A stretch of 64,000 nucleotides of DNA from Marivita geojedonensis (GTDB lineage Bacteria; Pseudomonadota; Alphaproteobacteria; Rhodobacterales; Rhodobacteraceae), in contig NZ_JFKC01000020.1 in assembly GCF_002115805.1 (NCBI RefSeq), forward strand, positions 1 through 64,000. Direction: 5' to 3'. The notes under the pieces are model-generated. The model was not told the DNA's origin. It did not search any database and saw only the letters and a list, made by a program, of their open reading frames with translations. Position 1 is the first letter of the stretch. Each line of letters begins with the position of its first letter. Made by a program: the position numbers and the translations under genes. Shown here piece by piece: positions 1 to 6,552 of this stretch.

Positions 1-69
1 CCAACCTTAGTTATCCAATGGGATCAAGGCATAGGCTACGAGGCGTAACCATAGCGGGAGGTAGCACGA

Positions 70-210
70 ATGCTTGCGGAATATGGACTGCTGCTTTCTG
101 GTACGAGCGATTGGAGCTATGCTTTACACTCTTTCATGAACGGTCCGTGGTTTTGGGTGGCAATTGGTGCTTTTGTGGCAGTCACAGTAATCTTTTGGTT
201 CATGCGATGA
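70..210 (+). CDS. Small single-span membrane protein (46 aa)
   Basis: This is an unrecognised 46-residue protein. The ATG at 70 is preceded by a near-perfect Shine-Dalgarno GGGAGG at 56-61 with an 8-base spacer, and the frame runs to TGA at 208-210. The first half is polar with aromatic residues (MLAEYGLLLSGTSDWSYALH). The second half, about residues 27-45, is a continuous hydrophobic segment rich in Trp, Phe, Val and Ala that ends in Met-Arg, as expected for one membrane helix. A longer overlapping frame beginning at 18 uses another phase, lacks a ribosome site and shows no protein-like composition. No function can be assigned. It lies in the AT-richer island, so it may be a membrane peptide of mobile-element origin. 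Confidence 0.6.
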   Translation: MLAEYGLLLSGTSDWSYALHSFMNGPWFWVAIGAFVAVTVIFWFMR

Positions 211-254
211 TCAGTTTGTTCTGATTTTGATTTCAGGCTGCAGCTTTTGCGCGC

Positions 255-644
255 TCACATCTTCGCGCATGTTCCAATGGCTATACTAGGCCTTCCATCG
301 TTGTCTTCTTCGCGTGTGTACCCAGAAGATGCTGATGTAACAAATCTCAAAGCGACAGTGGAGAAATTGAATTGCTCAAATGCATTGACGCAAAGTACGT
401 CCACAGCACCGATGCAAGACACTCCTTCAAAGCGAGGGACATGTTCACCAAATCTAAGGACTTTCGTTCCGTCTTCGTTGTCCTCTTGAACAGTGACTAG
501 CCATTTGGACAATGGCAAATCTACCACGACCCATTCACTCTCTCTCAAAGCAAATCCCGCTTTCTTATCCTCAATGCAAAGGTACGTTTCTGCGCGTAGC
601 TGCGTAACAGACAAGAGCAACAAACCCAGTATCGCACGGATCAT
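255..644 (-). CDS. Hypothetical exported protein
   Basis: This is a 129-residue protein of unknown function. It starts MIRAILGLLLLSVTQLRA, a short basic N-terminus plus hydrophobic core ending in an Ala-X-Ala-like cleavage site, so export to the periplasm is likely. The mature part holds four to five cysteines, including a C near the new N-terminus and a Cys pair in the middle (SCIGAVDVLC), which may form disulfides. A GGGGAT stretch sits just upstream of the ATG at 644 as a possible ribosome site. It stands alone, is codon-poor in GC compared with genes after 2.9 kb, and resembles no family I can name. Confidence 0.6.
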   Translation of the reverse strand: MIRAILGLLLLSVTQLRAETYLCIEDKKAGFALRESEWVVVDLPLSKWLVTVQEDNEDGTKVLRFGEHVPRFEGVSCIGAVDVLCVNAFEQFNFSTVALRFVTSASSGYTREEDNDGRPSIAIGTCAKM

Positions 645-782
645 AGGGTATCCCCAACTTGTTGAATAAACTCGAGTAGTGGGCTTGATCGGAAGAAACG
701 GTATGGCCTAACTAAGCTAATCCACGTTGGCTGCTCTTAGTTCTACGTCGGTTTGATCAGCCAACAGTGGGTACGTGCGGGC

Positions 783-965
783 TCAGCTTTCGTGTGGGCC
801 GCGCATCTCGCTAATGGCTCTTTGTATCTTGCGCCAGGTTTCCGCTTCCTCAGTTTCTCCCGCGTCTTCGTGATGCTTGGCCTTTTGCGCGGCTTCTACC
901 TGAGCCTTATCTCCGTGGGCTTTGTACAGTGCGCGCGCGTATTCGTGGGTTTTCACTTGGTCCAT
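783..965 (-). CDS. Small charged helical protein (60 aa)
   Basis: This is a 60-residue cytosolic protein starting MDQVKTHEYARALY. It is dense in Ala, Glu, Lys and Arg with no hydrophobic segment, so it is probably two amphipathic helices. The ATG at 965 follows a strong GGGAGGGG Shine-Dalgarno at correct spacing, which supports translation. I have a general memory of very similar short proteins (ending in a Trp-Arg-X-Ile...Gly-Pro-His-X-Ser tail) being common in Rhodobacteraceae, but I cannot verify it here. Function is unknown. It is the best-supported gene of the left-hand island by ribosome site and composition. Confidence 0.7.
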   Translation of the reverse strand: MDQVKTHEYARALYKAHGDKAQVEAAQKAKHHEDAGETEEAETWRKIQRAISEMRGPHES

Positions 966-1248
966 AGTCCCCTCCCAAAGTCACATGCCGAAACCGGATT
1001 GTTGACGGCCTCTAACAACAACTTCGCACGAACTGCGCTGGCTGGGTTTGACACATATCAACTCTACAGCAGAGTAGACTAGCGTTTGTCCCACTTGCGA
1101 AATGCGTCCAGCGCGAAAAGATTACATCACATTCAACGGATTAGATATTTAGGTCAGCAGCTCTTACTTGATACGGCAACTACGGATGATCAATTGTACG
1201 GTCTGCGAGTACACTTGGTATTCAACATTAAGTTCCCAAAGACTTACA

Positions 1249-1283
1249 CCTGTGTTGCCTCCGGGCAGCACAGGCTTTTTGTT
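1249..1283 (+). terminator. Strong intrinsic terminator, possibly of a small RNA
   Basis: Arms 1249-1259 and 1264-1274 form an 11-bp stem with a single G-T wobble, closed by the tetraloop TCCG and followed by CTTTTTGTTT. No coding sequence on the plus strand ends upstream of it, so the transcript it ends is probably non-coding or comes from an unrecognised short gene. Confidence 0.75.
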
Positions 1284-1368
1284 TGTAGGTCAGAGTGTCT
1301 GTCTTGATTTTTGGCGAGCGTGTGAAAGCCTGAGAAGGCATTCAAAGCATAAATTTCCATCACCCAAG

Positions 1369-1420
1369 CGAAGAGGCCCGTTCTGCTCGTGGACCCTAGA
1401 CCTACCGTTGGGCCTCTTCG
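1369..1420. repeat. 11-bp perfect inverted repeat with 30-nt loop
   Basis: CGAAGAGGCCC at 1369-1379 is exactly complementary to GGGCCTCTTCG at 1410-1420. The 30-nt interval could be an RNA loop. A TCTTT run follows on the plus strand, so it could also be a weak terminator. It lies 90 bases beyond the terminator at 1249-1283 in gene-free DNA. Confidence 0.6.
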
Positions 1421-2007
1421 TCTTTCCGCGTCAGCTCAGCTCTACCCGTAGGCTCTGGAGGAGTTTTCCCCTGCTCGCCTCCAAGTAGCGCATCCAGAGA
1501 GCCACCAACAAAGACGATCCTGAACTCCACCTCTCCCAGAGCCTTACACCTCCGACAACGACATCTACGCGTCGCTGAGCCAAAAGAAATTGCTCATGTC
1601 ACAGGAACTGTGAATCAGGCAGTGCATTCGAAAAAAATGCATCCTGACCCTAAGGCTTAAGGTCCGAAGCCGGTTATCAGCTTATCAGCTTTCTAGGGAG
1701 CAATACAGCTGCAAGATTTGCCAGTTTGAACGCAAAGCCAGCCCTATCTTGCGCGAGACTACACTCAGTCTGTTCCAACTTATCAAGTTCACTTTGACTC
1801 TTCAAAGGAGGGAAAATGTCTGATTTTGAGCAATGCCCAACCGATTGCCGTGCACTCTTCCGTTTCATGATACACCAAATTTTTTTTGTTGTTTGGAAAG
1901 CGCTTTTCGCCATCCCTTGCCAGCCAAGGTGCAGACCAATCGTGTCAAAAATTGGGCAATTAAGGTTTCTTTTCGGCTGAGTTTGGAAACAGAGTGTTTA
2001 GTCGCTG

Positions 2008-2289
2008 CTATAGTTGTGTCCCGAGGCCGCTAAGTCTTGGCCAAAAACCGCTGTCGCCGAGCGTTGGCGTTATCATCAGCTCTCCGCTTTTTCGAACGAA
2101 ACTGCTTACGTGGAAGTTCCGGCCTTGCATCCCGTACGACCTGAGTGACCATCTTCCTGTGAATTCAAAGAACTCGCCCGGCTCCATGCCCGGTAGCCTT
2201 CCTGTAATGGTAATCCTCTCGCCATGGTCGAGCTGGAACAAAGGACACATTGCCCCTTGGCCCACATACGTGCCAGTAATTTTCTGCAT
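2008..2289 (-). CDS. Stand-alone OB-fold-like protein resembling the RecD2/YrrC N-terminus
   Basis: This 93-residue protein has the pattern Gly-Glu-Arg-Ile-Thr-Ile-Thr-Gly-Arg-Leu-Pro-Gly-Met-Glu-Pro-Gly-Glu, then a Gly-Arg-Trp, Tyr-Gly and Phe-X-Val series (residues about 23-58). The order resembles the OB-fold N-terminal region of RecD2/YrrC helicases, where a short beta-barrel precedes the helicase. No helicase motifs follow, because the frame ends about 35 residues later. The ATG at 2289 lacks a clear Shine-Dalgarno. The overlapping -1 frame (2165-2356) also looks protein-like at its start (METKDVVAISV), so a frameshifted longer gene is possible. Family assignment is by eye and tentative. 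Confidence 0.5.
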   Translation of the reverse strand: MQKITGTYVGQGAMCPLFQLDHGERITITGRLPGMEPGEFFEFTGRWSLRSYGMQGRNFHVSSFVRKSGELMITPTLGDSGFWPRLSGLGTQL

Positions 2290-2692
2290 GTGAATACTGT
2301 TCGATTGTTTCTTGTCTCGAGACAGAGATAGCCACTACGTCTTTTGTTTCCATCACAGGGACTGTTGCACGGCGGATTTTCGCTACTGGCTTGTGGACAA
2401 GACGTGGACAACTCGTGATTTCAAGTCACACCCACTGATTCATAAACCCGCCCATCAGCCTTTGGTTCTCCGACCGCCTTTGTGTCTGACGACGAGTTGC
2501 AACTTACATCGAGCATCAAGGTCATTCATGAGTGCTACCCTCTGTCAACGTGTCGATAGGTAGTCAGCAAAGACATACCCGGTAACAGAGGCGTGCCAAC
2601 AGTACGGAGACAGGGATCAGAGAGGAGTGACCGCAAACACCAAAGGTCAGGCTCAGGTGGTTGCTTGTGATGCTGGCGAGCTCGTCATGGGT
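2290..2692. other. No gene seen; island flank
   Basis: No reading frame here has both a ribosome site and protein-like composition on either strand. The segment links the OB-like gene to the tRNA-Leu remnant and is presumably part of the island's integration flank. No promoter or terminator could be named with confidence. Confidence 0.45.
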
Positions 2693-2763
2693 CGCAGGGG
2701 ATTGCACCTGAGGTACAGTGTTTGAAATCCTGCATGACGCCTACCAATTGCCTACCAATCCAC
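2693..2763. repeat. Degenerate tRNA-Leu-like repeats beside the island boundary
   Basis: CGCAGGGGATT at 2693-2703 is an exact inverted copy of the tRNA remnant's anticodon-arm sequence at 2826-2836. On the minus strand, 2717-2760 reads as a degraded copy of the D-arm and CAA anticodon region (GGTAGGCG...GGATTTCAAA). GCCTACCAAT is directly repeated at 2739-2748 and 2750-2759. Together these look like a recombinase attachment region with duplicated core or arm sites. Confidence 0.45.
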
Positions 2764-2814
2764 TGAGCTCTTCCCCTAAGTAATTGAATAGATTGTTATT
2801 TTGGCGATTCGTAA

Positions 2815-2858
2815 GGAGAGTTTTGAATCCCCTGCGTCTACCATTCCGCCACTTGGGC
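2815..2858 (-). pseudogene. 5' half of a tRNA-Leu(CAA) gene, 3' half missing
   Basis: Reading the minus strand from 2858, the acceptor 5' strand GCCCAAG, linker TG, a leucine-type D-arm (GCGG...GGTAGAC) and an anticodon arm with loop TTCAAAA are all recognisable; the anticodon would be CAA. After the loop the expected 3' stem is replaced by a poor complement (TCTCC). No variable arm, T-arm or CCA end follows, and no matching 3' half exists down to base 1. The remnant marks the boundary between the AT-rich left end and core chromosome. An integrated element that crossed over in the anticodon arm is the likely cause; the complete gene would then lie at the other end of the element, outside the window. 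Confidence 0.65.
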
Positions 2859-2979
2859 CACGGGCAATCCCTATCCAAGCTGCAACACCTCGTCCAGCGC
2901 AAAAACGCCAGAGGCAGTGCAGCCTTGACCGGACCAAGGCGGCGTGGTCTTAGCCCGGCAACCCTCATTGGAGCGTCAC

Positions 2980-3558
2980 ATGCTGCAGCGTTTGTACCAG
3001 TGGACCATGTCTCTTGCCGATCACCCACGCGCCCTGTGGGTGCTGGCCGTGGTCGCCTTTGTCGAAAGCTCGGTTTTTCCGATCCCGCCGGATGTTCTGA
3101 TGATCCCCATGATCCTCGCCCGTCCGTCCCGCGCGTGGCTGATTGCCCTGGTCGCGACCACGTCATCGGTAGTGGGCGGGATGTTGGGTTATGGCATCGG
3201 GTATTTCTTTTACGAGACCATCGGTGAACCCATCCTGAGCACGCTTGGCAAGGCCGACGCGATGGCTGAATTCAATGAGCGTTTCAACGGTGTGGGCTTC
3301 TGGGCTGTGCTGATCGCCGGGGTGACGCCCTTCCCCTACAAGGTCATCACGATCATGTCGGGCTGGACGGCGATGCCGCTGGGCACCTTTGTTGTCACAT
3401 CTGTGATCGCCCGAGCCTTGCGGTTTTTCGTTGTAGCGGGTCTTTTGCGCGCATTCGGGGCACCGGTCCGCAGCTTTATCGAAAAGCGCCTTGGGCTGAT
3501 GTTCACCCTGTTTGTTCTGCTGCTTCTCGGAGGCTTCTACGTGGTGAAATTCCTGTGA
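2980..3558 (+). CDS. DedA/YqaA-like (SNARE-associated) membrane protein
   Basis: This 192-residue inner-membrane protein belongs to the DedA/VTT superfamily, whose members are linked to lipid carrier scrambling and membrane homeostasis. The N-terminal re-entrant signature is visible as VESSVFPIPPDVL near residue 27, followed by several hydrophobic segments, a polar loop (EFNERF) and a second half containing the Arg-rich stretch near SVIARALRFF. I chose the ATG at 2980 because GGAG lies six bases upstream; a GTG at 2944 would add residues without family resemblance. The stop overlaps the start of the dsbB gene by four bases, so the two are translationally coupled. Confidence 0.85.
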   Translation: MLQRLYQWTMSLADHPRALWVLAVVAFVESSVFPIPPDVLMIPMILARPSRAWLIALVATTSSVVGGMLGYGIGYFFYETIGEPILSTLGKADAMAEFNERFNGVGFWAVLIAGVTPFPYKVITIMSGWTAMPLGTFVVTSVIARALRFFVVAGLLRAFGAPVRSFIEKRLGLMFTLFVLLLLGGFYVVKFL

Positions 3559-4022
3559 GTCTGGATCGTCGGATGCTCATGTTGCTCGCCGCAGGCGGGT
3601 CGCTGGCGTTGATGCTGGGCGCGTTGGCGTTTCAGCACATCGGTGGTCTGCCGCCCTGCAAGCTGTGCATCTGGCAGCGCTATCCGCATGTGGTGGCGAT
3701 CGCGCTTGGAGCGGTGGCATTGCGGTTTGGCAATGCCGCAGTCGCATGGCTTGGCGCTTTGGCAGCGTTGGCGACGGCTGCAGTCGGTGCTTATCACACC
3801 GGCGTAGAGCGCGGCTGGTGGGAAGGTCCAACCACCTGCACCTCCGGGCCGATTGGCGGGCTGTCCACGGACGAGCTTTTCGACCAGATCATGAACGCGC
3901 CGCTGGTGCGCTGTGACGAAGTGCCGTGGGAAATGTTCGGCCTGTCCATGGCCAGCTGGAACATGGTGATTTCACTGGTTTTGATGGGTCTGTGGATCGC
4001 GGCAGCGCGCAAGCCCGCCTAA
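3555..4022 (+). CDS. dsbB: Disulfide bond formation protein B family
   Basis: DsbB reoxidises the periplasmic thiol oxidase DsbA and passes electrons to quinone. The 155-residue sequence has four hydrophobic segments, the first periplasmic pair CKLC (about residues 36-39), and a second periplasmic loop with Cys before TSGPIGG and Cys in RCDEVPW, which are the two cysteine pairs needed for electron transfer. The GTG start at 3555 overlaps the previous stop (GTGA); an ATG six codons later is an alternative. No dsbA is present nearby. The 3' end overlaps the convergent Lrp gene by four bases. Confidence 0.9.
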   Translation: MSLDRRMLMLLAAGGSLALMLGALAFQHIGGLPPCKLCIWQRYPHVVAIALGAVALRFGNAAVAWLGALAALATAAVGAYHTGVERGWWEGPTTCTSGPIGGLSTDELFDQIMNAPLVRCDEVPWEMFGLSMASWNMVISLVLMGLWIAAARKPA

Positions 4023-4447
4023 GCGCCGCTTTTGCGCGTCGACAGCAGGAGCGACGTTTCGGACTGCGACACCCCATCGAAACGGCGTATCCGGAACAGC
4101 ACGTCGTCCAGCGCTTCGAGCGTGTCGGTCCCAAGTTCGGCGATCACGTCCCAGCGCCCATTTGTGGAATGGAGCGCCCGGACCTCGGGCAATGCGGTCA
4201 ACTGGCGGATCACCCTGTCGGTGCCACGTCCCTCGATGCCGATCATCATCAGAGCCCGCACCGGGTCCTGGGCCACGTCCTCTTTCAGAACGACGGTGAA
4301 GCCCACCACATCTCCCGACGCTTGCAAGCGGTCGAGCCGCGAACGTACCGTGGCACGGGACAGATTGAGCGTTGTCGCCAGATCCGAAACCGACGCGCGG
4401 CCATTGTGGCGGAGGATCGAGATCAGTTTCTTGTCTGTGCTGTCCAT
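4019..4447 (-). CDS. Lrp/AsnC family transcriptional regulator
   Basis: This 142-residue regulator has an N-terminal winged helix-turn-helix (MDSTDKKLISILRHNGRASV, then LATTLNLSRATVRSRLDRL) and a C-terminal RAM ligand-binding domain from about residue 65. Lrp-type proteins form octamers that sense amino acids. It is transcribed away from the arginase-ornithine cyclodeaminase pair, and paired palindromic sites lie in the shared promoter, so arginine- or ornithine-responsive control of that operon and of itself is the natural inference. I chose ATG 4447, the usual family start; a TTG at 4468 would add seven atypical residues. Confidence 0.9.
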   Translation of the reverse strand: MDSTDKKLISILRHNGRASVSDLATTLNLSRATVRSRLDRLQASGDVVGFTVVLKEDVAQDPVRALMMIGIEGRGTDRVIRQLTALPEVRALHSTNGRWDVIAELGTDTLEALDDVLFRIRRFDGVSQSETSLLLSTRKSGA

Positions 4448-4464
4448 TTTGATCCAGTTACTAA

Positions 4465-4502
4465 CCAATTTGGAAAATAGTATCCCGAATTGATCAATTT
4501 GG
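4465..4502. promoter_or_regulatory. Candidate Lrp operators in the divergent promoter
   Basis: CCAATTTGG at 4465-4473 recurs as TCAATTTGG at 4494-4502, about three helical turns apart. AATTGATCAATT at 4488-4499 is a perfect 12-bp palindrome. These AT-rich symmetric sites stand out in the high-GC surroundings between the lrp-type gene and arginase and fit the multi-site binding of Lrp octamers. Assignment is inferred from position and symmetry. Confidence 0.55.
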
Positions 4503-4574
4503 CCAGTTCTCTACCGCCCGGATTGCACCCTATATCCCGATCAAAGATTCCCTTCGATCACGAGGACAGGATTG

Positions 4575-5498
4575 ATGCAGTCTCAGAATATCGTACTCGT
4601 CGGCGCGCCGCTGGATTGCGGAAAGGCCCGCAAAGGATGCCTGATGGGCCCTGACGCCTATCGCACCGCCGGGATTGCCCGTGCTCTGACCGCTTTGGGG
4701 CACAGCGTGAGTGATCTGGGCAATGTCGCACCGGATGCCAATGACATTCCGGAGCGCGACGGCTTGGTAAACCTTTCGGAAACCATCGGCTGGACCACGG
4801 CGCTGATGCGCACCGCGCAGGAGGCGATCCAACAGGGTTTGCCGATCTTCATGGGCGGCGATCACGCACTGTCTCTGGGCACCGTGCCGGGTGTCGCCGC
4901 ACATGCGGCTGAGCAGAACCGACCGCAATTCGTGCTCTGGCTCGACGCACACAGCGATTTCAATACGTTGGAGACCACCGCATCCGGCAACCTGCACGGA
5001 ACTCCGCTGGCCTATGCAACCGGGCAAAGCGGCTTTGATGGTTTCCCTGCCCTGCCCGCAATCGTTCCGCCCAGCCAAACCTGCATCATCGGTCTGCGGT
5101 CCGTCGATCTGCCCGAGCGTGAGCTTATGGCAGGTACCGGCGTGCGCGGCTACGACATGCGCGCCATCGACGAATCCGGTGTCGCGGCGCTGCTGAAGCC
5201 GTTCCTGGCGGATGTCGCCAAGGTGGGTGGCGCGCTGCATGTGTCGCTGGACGTGGATTTCATTGACCCGGCCTATGCGCCAGCCGTGGGCACCACTGTG
5301 CCCGGTGGCGCGACGGTGCGTGAGGCGCATCTGGTGATGGAGATGCTCTGTGACAGCGGGCTGATGACCTCGCTTGATCTGGTGGAACTGAACCCCATGC
5401 TCGACGAGCGGGGGCGCACGGCGCAGCTGATGGTCGATCTTGCCGCTTCGGCGCTGGGTCGCCGTATCTTCGACCGCCCCACCCCGCGCATGATCTGA
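4575..5498 (+). CDS. rocF: Arginase
   Basis: Arginase hydrolyses L-arginine to ornithine and urea using a binuclear manganese centre. In this 307-residue protein the metal-binding motifs are GGDH at 94-97, DAHSDFN at 124-130 and SLDVDFIDP near residue 225, in the canonical order. I start at ATG 4575, behind GAGGACAGG; a TTG one codon earlier is less likely. The next gene, ornithine cyclodeaminase, begins 10 bases after the stop, so the pair forms an arginine-to-proline catabolic operon. Regulation by the divergent Lrp-type protein is likely. Confidence 0.93.
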   Translation: MQSQNIVLVGAPLDCGKARKGCLMGPDAYRTAGIARALTALGHSVSDLGNVAPDANDIPERDGLVNLSETIGWTTALMRTAQEAIQQGLPIFMGGDHALSLGTVPGVAAHAAEQNRPQFVLWLDAHSDFNTLETTASGNLHGTPLAYATGQSGFDGFPALPAIVPPSQTCIIGLRSVDLPERELMAGTGVRGYDMRAIDESGVAALLKPFLADVAKVGGALHVSLDVDFIDPAYAPAVGTTVPGGATVREAHLVMEMLCDSGLMTSLDLVELNPMLDERGRTAQLMVDLAASALGRRIFDRPTPRMI

Positions 5499-5508
5499 GG
5501 AGGCCGCC

Positions 5509-6552
5509 ATGCAACCGTCAGACAAGGCCTTGGTACCTTTCGTTTCGGTCGATCACATGATGCAGCTGGTGCATCGGGTCGGCCTGGCCGAAATGATCCG
5601 CCGTATTGCAGAGGCCATTGAAGAGGATTTCCGCCGCTGGGAAAGCTTCGACAAGACTCCCCGCGTGGCCGCGCACAGCCCGGTGGGTGTGATCGAACTC
5701 ATGCCCACGGCAAACGACACGCTTTACGCGTTCAAATACGTGAACGGGCATCCCAAGAACACGTCGGAAGGCTTGCAGACCGTCACGGCTTTTGGGCTGC
5801 TGGCGGATGTGGACACGGGCTATCCGGTTCTGCTGTCCGAGATGACCCTGCTCACCGCGCTGCGCACAGCGGCGATGTCGGCGGTCGCGGCGAAGTACCT
5901 CGCACCCAAGGGGACGACCACGATGGCGATGATCGGCAATGGCGCGCAGGCCGAATTCCAGAGCATCGCCATGCAGGCGATCTGCGGGATCGATACGGTG
6001 CGGCTCTACGACAAGGATCCGGCCGCGACGGTGAAATGCGCCGGGAACCTCGCGGGCACGGGCCTGACCATCGTCGCCTGCAGCAGCGCCGAAGAGGCCA
6101 TCGAAGGCGCGCAGATCCTGACCACCTGCACAGCGGACAAGCAATACGCGACGATCCTCACCGACAACATGGTTGGCAGCGGTGTGCATATCAACGCCAT
6201 TGGCGGCGACTGCCCGGGAAAGACGGAACTGGCCAGCGCGATTCTGCACCGGTCGTCGATTTTTGTGGAATATCCCCCTCAGACCCGGATCGAAGGCGAA
6301 ATCCAGCAGTTGGACCCGGATCATCCGGTAACAGAGCTGTGGCAGGTGATCACCGGCGCTGCGCCGGGCCGCCGCGACGCGCGGGAGATCACGCTGTTCG
6401 ACAGCGTGGGGTTTGCGATCGAGGATTTCTCGGCGCTGCGGGTGGTGCATGATCTGACCCGCGAAACCGGGTTGAACCTGCCGCTGGACCTGCTCGCCGA
6501 TCCGGACGACCCGCGCGACCTCTACGGGATGCTTATGCGCGCGGCGGGGTGA
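5509..6552 (+). CDS. Ornithine cyclodeaminase
   Basis: This enzyme converts ornithine to proline and ammonia with tightly bound NAD. The 347-residue protein has the mu-crystallin/OCD fold markers: a substrate lysine in AFKYVNG (about 76), the dinucleotide-binding turn GNGAQAEF at 143-150 and the GGDCPGKTEL segment near 238-247 that carries the catalytic aspartate. ATG 5509 is preceded by GAGGAGG. It is cotranscribed with arginase, giving the two-step route arginine to ornithine to proline. A double hairpin directly after the stop ends the operon. Confidence 0.92.
   Translation: MQPSDKALVPFVSVDHMMQLVHRVGLAEMIRRIAEAIEEDFRRWESFDKTPRVAAHSPVGVIELMPTANDTLYAFKYVNGHPKNTSEGLQTVTAFGLLADVDTGYPVLLSEMTLLTALRTAAMSAVAAKYLAPKGTTTMAMIGNGAQAEFQSIAMQAICGIDTVRLYDKDPAATVKCAGNLAGTGLTIVACSSAEEAIEGAQILTTCTADKQYATILTDNMVGSGVHINAIGGDCPGKTELASAILHRSSIFVEYPPQTRIEGEIQQLDPDHPVTELWQVITGAAPGRRDAREITLFDSVGFAIEDFSALRVVHDLTRETGLNLPLDLLADPDDPRDLYGMLMRAAG

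What the first reader, a model, noticed from the sequence alone, without database searches (positions are those of the whole stretch)
2693..2858. Half tRNA-Leu(CAA) at an island boundary, with duplicated anticodon-arm sequences
The 5' half of a tRNA-Leu gene ends just past the anticodon loop and is replaced by AT-richer DNA. An exact inverted 11-bp copy of the anticodon-arm core (2693-2703), a degraded second D-arm/anticodon copy and a tandem GCCTACCAAT lie beside it. Most elements split tRNA genes near the 3' end and restore them. Here the promoter-bearing 5' half is left unrepaired, which suggests a crossover in the anticodon arm plus later rearrangement.
Basis: partly seen in the sequence, partly recalled or inferred. 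Interest (0 to 1): 0.55.

Follow-up and report, generated by a model that had tools for sequence, protein, structure and literature searches.

The report
Back-to-front integrated element in tRNA-Leu
The half tRNA gene is the scar at one end of a small mobile DNA element that inserts into a leucine tRNA gene "backwards", supplying a new front half at its other end, so the gene is not broken; the arrangement is known but rare, and it recurs here in a family of related elements.

Summary
Window 2821-2858 (minus) is an exact 5' half of tRNA-Leu(CAA), ending after the anticodon loop. The other island end is on contig C7 of the same genome: an intact tRNA-Leu(CAA) with an identical 5' half, whose 5' end faces a divergent tyrosine-integrase gene. 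Joining the host flanks in silico gives one complete tRNA-Leu that aligns across the junction with relatives lacking the element. So the element crossed over in the 5' half, most likely at the anticodon loop, and brought its own 5' half and upstream DNA: the reverse of the usual 3'-restoring geometry. Ten elements with related integrases show this layout at tRNA-Leu CAA or UAA; in all eight whose second end was found, the half stops at the same nucleotide. The tandem GCCTACCAAT is an 11-bp-phased repeat on attL (8 of 8) and attR (10 of 10), probably integrase arm sites. The inverted 11-mer recurs before the integrase start codon; leaders resemble their own target tRNA, with a ribosome-binding-site confound. 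Reversed tRNA integration is known but rare; new here are a coherent family and the leader copy.

The parts
1..2820 (.). C13 part of the integrated element (the contig starts at window base 1; the rest is on C7 from 86416 to the contig end and possibly on other contigs)
   Evidence: GC 49.5% against 61.5% in the flank; no match to relatives' locus left of 2821
255..644 (-). ORF of 129 aa in the element, no Pfam match
2008..2289 (-). ORF of 93 aa in the element with a weak OB_YrrC domain match (27.7 bits, cut-off 27)
2693..2703 (+). Inverted 11-bp copy of the tRNA anticodon-arm 5' strand (CGCAGGGGATT); the same 11-mer stands just before the integrase start codon on C7; not found in the seven other attL arms
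2739..2755 (+). Pair of 11-bp-phased repeats (GCCTACCAATTGCCTAC), probable arm-type integrase sites of attL
   Evidence: 8 of 8 attL and 10 of 10 attR arms have such a pair
2821..2827 (-). Anticodon loop TTCAAAA, probable 7-bp overlap region of the crossover
   Evidence: all eight half-tRNAs stop directly after it; exact cut sites inferred
2821..2858 (-). 5' half of tRNA-Leu(CAA) left at the attL end (host copy)
   Evidence: 38/38 identical to the 5' half of the intact copy on C7
2873..2902 (-). Probable native tRNA promoter (TTGCGC, 18 bp, TTGGAT), now pointing into the island; weak match, 6 of 12 consensus bases
   Evidence: the same stretch is present before the intact tRNA in relatives L002, L007, L008 with few changes
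2860..6000 (.). Host flank (DedA-like, DsbB-like genes by my reading) syntenic with relatives in which the tRNA is whole

Best explanation
This is one end (attL) of an integrative element whose tyrosine integrase recombines within the 5' half of tRNA-Leu(CAA), most likely at the anticodon loop. The element's own attP carries a copy of the tRNA's 5' half plus upstream DNA beside the integrase gene. After integration the integrase-side end (contig C7) holds a whole tRNA-Leu: the element's 5' half joined to the host's 3' half, so transcribed from element DNA. The far end (this window) keeps the host's original 5' half and promoter region, now pointing into the island. Shown: both ends, the 39-bp identical repeat, the empty site in relatives, the integrase, in-silico excision giving one whole tRNA, and the same layout in nine related elements. 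Inferred: the exact crossover position, integrase binding to the 11-bp repeats, promoter activity, and that the element can still move.
For: Intact tRNA-Leu(CAA) on C7 with the integrase at its 5' end; C7 and C13 flanks match opposite sides of the same locus in relatives; the joined flanks give one tRNA-Leu and align across the junction as one piece with 6 of 9 relative loci, as two colinear pieces with 3; integrase not found in the 16 other genus members searched; five closest integrase relatives all beside the 5' end of tRNA-Leu with a second 5' half 4.0-15.5 kb away; further elements in named genomes; arm repeats 8 of 8 and 10 of 10.
Against: The island is split over contigs, so C7 and C13 were not seen joined through the element. 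No convincing promoter was found before the restored tRNA. Of 11 named loci, L076 lies by a 3' tRNA half instead, and L084 and L085 (24% and 22% identity) have no adjacent tRNA-Leu. Of the 30 best loci, 21 showed no tRNA in the fetched flank.
Confidence: 0.93

Rival explanations
1. Crossover in the anticodon arm followed by rearrangement that left the tRNA unrepaired.
For: The window alone shows only the half.
Against: The whole tRNA is present at the other end with matching host flank; eight elements share the same break-point.
Confidence: 0.03
2. Usual 3'-restoring insertion, with the half being an old remnant of another event and the C7 integrase a neighbour by chance.
For: The 3' side of the C7 tRNA is also variable between relatives, so other insertions at this locus are plausible.
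Against: The element DNA begins at the 5' end of the C7 tRNA and at the 3' end of the window half, which is the reverse geometry; the same in nine other elements at the integrase end.
Confidence: 0.02
3. For the inverted 11-mer: it is only a ribosome-binding site (at the integrase) and a chance match (in the window), not a recombination or control site.
For: AGGGGA stands directly before the start codon, where a purine-rich site is expected; the attL copy is not conserved in seven other elements; L064 and L066 leaders score slightly higher with another element's UAA tRNA; relatedness of the integrases explains part of the likeness.
Against: The match extends to 10-13 bases in G000, L065 and L075; the summed score 92.5 exceeds all 300 shuffles (maximum 63.5); 8 of 10 leaders score higher with tRNAs of their own target class; the UAA target is on two separate branches of the tree.
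Confidence: 0.55

Closest known systems
[quoted passage not shown] title seen in the reference list of PMC6563490, text not held)
   Same: Reversed target orientation: 5' part of the tRNA gene shared, whole tRNA rebuilt from element 5' part and host 3' part
   Different: Details could not be compared because the paper was not held
Archaeal pTN3-like integrases (PMC8371274, passages)
   Same: attB is the 5' half of a tRNA gene; the rebuilt tRNA is said to be expressed from the integrase-side promoter
   Different: Archaeal; [quoted passage not shown]
Usual 3'-restoring tRNA-integrating elements and prophages (PMC10865867, passages)
   Same: Tyrosine integrase, 30-45 bp common core, a tRNA rebuilt at one junction, crossover often at the anticodon loop
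   Different: There the element supplies the 3' half and the native promoter is kept
tRNA-dependent lysogeny phages (PMC10865867, passages)
   Same: The element supplies tRNA function after splitting the host gene, tRNA-Leu(CAA) among the sites
   Different: Those phages carry a separate whole tRNA gene; here a half gene is fused at the junction

Membership tests
Element integrated by a tyrosine recombinase | Integrase with catalytic domain next to an att junction | tested here: met
   PF00589 and PF13356 matches; R...HxxR...Y residues in the alignment by my reading
Element integrated by a tyrosine recombinase | Identical direct repeats at both ends and an empty site in relatives | tested here: met
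   39/39 bases; joined flanks colinear with relatives
5'-restoring (reversed) tRNA-integrating element | Shared core is the 5' half; whole tRNA beside the integrase with its 5' side in element DNA | tested here: met
5'-restoring (reversed) tRNA-integrating element | Rebuilt tRNA transcribed from an element promoter | tested here: inconclusive
   follows from the geometry, but promoter scans gave only weak matches
3'-restoring tRNA-integrating element | Element supplies the 3' half; native promoter kept | tested here: not met
Prophage | Phage structural genes | tested here: inconclusive
   only five ORFs of the two island ends were scanned with Pfam and none matched a structural family; the middle of the island is not assembled
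Active mobile element | Excision as a circle and transfer | not testable with these tools
   needs PCR or reads

The most novel reading that the evidence does not exclude
The copy of the target tRNA's anticodon stem that overlaps the integrase's translation start is a working core-type site: integrase bound there would limit its own synthesis, and the copy changes together with the tRNA that is targeted, so retargeting between tRNA-Leu(CAA) and (UAA) would also rewrite the integrase's own switch. In the window's element a second copy on the far arm would make the site nearly symmetric (about 117-121 bp on either side of the core).
Probability: 0.25. Interest if true: 0.65.

Novelty: new member of a known kind. 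Interest (0 to 1): 0.42.

Why it matters
It turns a seldom-reported arrangement (an element that replaces the front half of a tRNA gene and what lies upstream of it) into a family with several separate insertions at two tRNA-Leu genes. One can then test how a host's tRNA-Leu supply comes to depend on a mobile element, and how integrases switch target tRNA and polarity. It also warns that a half tRNA at a contig end need not be a broken gene.

Tried and rejected
Rejected: unrepaired or rearranged tRNA (restored copy on C7). Rejected: a second degraded direct tRNA copy (p about 0.23 without the arm repeats). Tried without result: named relatives through the single integrase in genome contigs (7 pattern matches, 0 relatives) and through the alignment in viral contigs (34 pattern matches, 0 relatives); phage records gave only distant integrases, 22.8-26.7% identity in 13 records. 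A first tRNA pattern with a wrong spacer found only two other sequences and was replaced. Promoter search before the restored tRNA: weak matches only, in all islands. Idea that the captured tRNA promoter drives island genes: the nearest listed ORF reads away from the half in L064 and L067, and so does the nearest Pfam-matched ORF in the window, but not in L065, L066 or L075; L068 holds transposase-like ORFs; not pursued. A stricter repeat pattern missed 3 of 8 attL and 2 of 10 attR arms; the looser one found all and was written after seeing those misses. Literature: Zhao and Williams 2002, Williams 2002 and Castillo 2018 are not held. Searches for prior reports of this arrangement; from titles and abstract starts none reports a Rhodobacterales 5'-restoring tRNA-Leu element, and only PMC6563490, PMC11476347, PMC10865867 and PMC8371274 were opened (passages only).

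Full report
What is there. On the minus strand, window 2858-2821 is the exact 5' half of tRNA-Leu(CAA); with the next base, 39/39 positions match an intact tRNA-Leu(CAA) elsewhere in the same genome. ARAGORN sees no tRNA at the site. Identity stops directly after the anticodon loop and GC falls from 61.5% to 49.5%. The window begins at base 1 of contig C13, so the rest of the island lies on other contigs.

The other end. The intact tRNA-Leu(CAA) is at G000:C7:86330-86415 (L009:6331-6416), 2.3 kb from the end of that contig. Its 5' end faces a divergent integrase gene (L009:6520-7788, 423 aa) with Phage_integrase and Arm-DNA-bind_3 matches. C7 sequence further left (within L009:2062-4679) matches the region on that side of the tRNA in four relatives (L011, L012, L014, L015), whereas window sequence right of 2821 matches the region on the other side. 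C7 and C13 are therefore the two sides of one native locus. With a 32-base pattern and up to 3 mismatches, these two are the only copies in the genome.

Empty site. Joining the host flanks gives one tRNA-Leu(CAA). The joined site aligns as a single piece across the junction with 6 of 9 relative loci and as two colinear pieces with the other 3; the joined element ends hold no whole tRNA. At E 1e-45 the integrase alignment was not found in the 16 other members of the genus. ARAGORN found an intact tRNA-Leu(CAA) in all 14 loci given to it, which cover G000:C7, 11 of the 16 other genus members (one of them twice) and one genome of another genus.

A family. Among 394 family genomes, 72 (G000 included) have a match to the integrase at E 1e-10. 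The five closest relatives (37-48% identity over the matched stretch) all lie beside the 5' end of an intact tRNA-Leu, CAA in three and UAA in two. Of the 30 best loci scanned, 21 had no tRNA within the fetched flank, and three more distant relatives had other neighbours: L033 at the 3' side of tRNA-Thr, L038 beside a half and a whole tRNA-Thr, L039 beside a predicted tRNA-Leu. Each of the five genomes has exactly two copies of the 5' half in one direction, 4.0, 4.1, 6.4, 13.9 and 15.5 kb apart. The alignment found 11 loci in named genomes; three have the contig lengths of genomes already seen (inferred to be Tateyamaria sp. Alg231-49, Aestuariivita boseongensis and strain HIMB11). New are Sulfitobacter sediminilitoris (both ends on one contig, 10.3 kb apart), Thalassovita litoralis (loci L080 and L082, one end on each of two contigs) and two MAG contigs (L077, L083) with the integrase end only. 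L076 does not fit (below), and L084 and L085 (24% and 22% identity) show no adjacent tRNA-Leu. In total ten elements have the reversed layout, eight with both ends, and in all eight the half stops at the same nucleotide. In six of the eight the two copies are identical; in two the half copy has one change.

Arm repeats. The tandem GCCTACCAAT is one example of a pair of [GA][TCA]CT[AT][CT] repeats with 11-bp period: 8 of 8 attL arms and 10 of 10 attR arms, against means of 0.04 and 0.11 in 500 shuffles, maximum 2. A stricter pattern had found 5 of 8 and 8 of 10; the looser one was written after seeing those. These are most likely arm-type binding sites; binding is inferred. The commonest 8-mers include GTCTACCA, which is also in the D-arm of these tRNA-Leu genes.

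The inverted 11-mer. CGCAGGGGATT at 2693-2703 also stands directly before the integrase start codon on C7. Across ten elements the integrase leader resembles the anticodon-arm 5' strand of its own target tRNA more than shuffled leaders do (summed score 92.5; 300 shuffles mean 49.0, maximum 63.5; singly 9 of 10 at p below 0.05, L082 at 0.07). Eight of ten leaders score higher with tRNAs of their own class; L064 and L066 score slightly higher with the UAA tRNA of another element. A purine-rich ribosome-binding site is expected at this place, so part of the likeness may come from that. The tree puts UAA-targeting L068 next to CAA-targeting L064 (100/99) and UAA-targeting L067 elsewhere, so the target probably changed more than once. 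The far-arm copy seen in the window was not found in the seven other attL arms.

How it works. Integrase most likely cuts around the 7-bp anticodon loop, which with its stem resembles the core site of known tyrosine recombinases (PMC8371274, passages). The element carries the 5' half and what lies upstream, so the tRNA is rebuilt beside the integrase and the native promoter region is left on the useless half. PMC8371274 says that bacterial recombinant tRNA genes keep their original promoter with very few exceptions, that archaeal pTN3-like integrases use the 5' half with expression from the integrase promoter, and that a similar situation has seldom been met in bacteria (passages). PMC6563490 says that recombination with the 5' region is considerably less frequent and cites Zhao and Williams 2002 (passages). 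That paper is not held, so I cannot say how close its element is.

Limits. The middle of the island is missing, promoters were not identified convincingly, and mobility was not tested. L076 (Cognatishimia MAG, 47% identity, inside the clade at 97/99) has its integrase after a 3' half that I read as tRNA-Phe from its letters (no program called it), with another integrase-like ORF on the other side. This may be an insertion of the usual polarity, so polarity may not be fixed in the family.

Cargo in a relative. The Aestuariivita element (L064) has matches to type IV Cas5/Csf3, Cas7/Csf2, DinG/Csf4 and to Cas6e beside eight 28-bp repeats spaced 64-67 bp: by these marks a type IV-A CRISPR-Cas locus on a chromosomal tRNA-integrated element.

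Noticed in passing
L064:6112-12471 (G317, inferred Aestuariivita boseongensis): The related tRNA-Leu element carries a type IV-A-like CRISPR-Cas set (Csf3, Cas6e, Csf2, Csf4/DinG matches) with an eight-repeat array.
   Followed up: partly
L076:4200-5693 (Cognatishimia MAG): A family member (47% identity) has its integrase after what reads as a tRNA-Phe 3' half, with the same arm repeats; polarity may have flipped within the clade.
   Followed up: partly
L038:2600-2911 (G306): A tRNA-Thr 5' half ending at the anticodon loop stands about 130 bp before a whole tRNA-Thr, with a phased AGTAGGG pair between them; a distant relative of the integrase lies on the other side.
   Followed up: no
L009:4577-6330: The 3' side of the tRNA on C7 is also variable between relatives and holds a gene with a Condensation domain match.
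   Followed up: no
L064:14449-16110 and L066:5394-6551: Two elements share DEAD-type helicase-like genes, possibly replication genes of satellite-like elements.
   Followed up: no
L009:6417-6439: A short hairpin followed by T's lies between the restored tRNA and the integrase; a close version is at the same place in L075, possibly a terminator.
   Followed up: no
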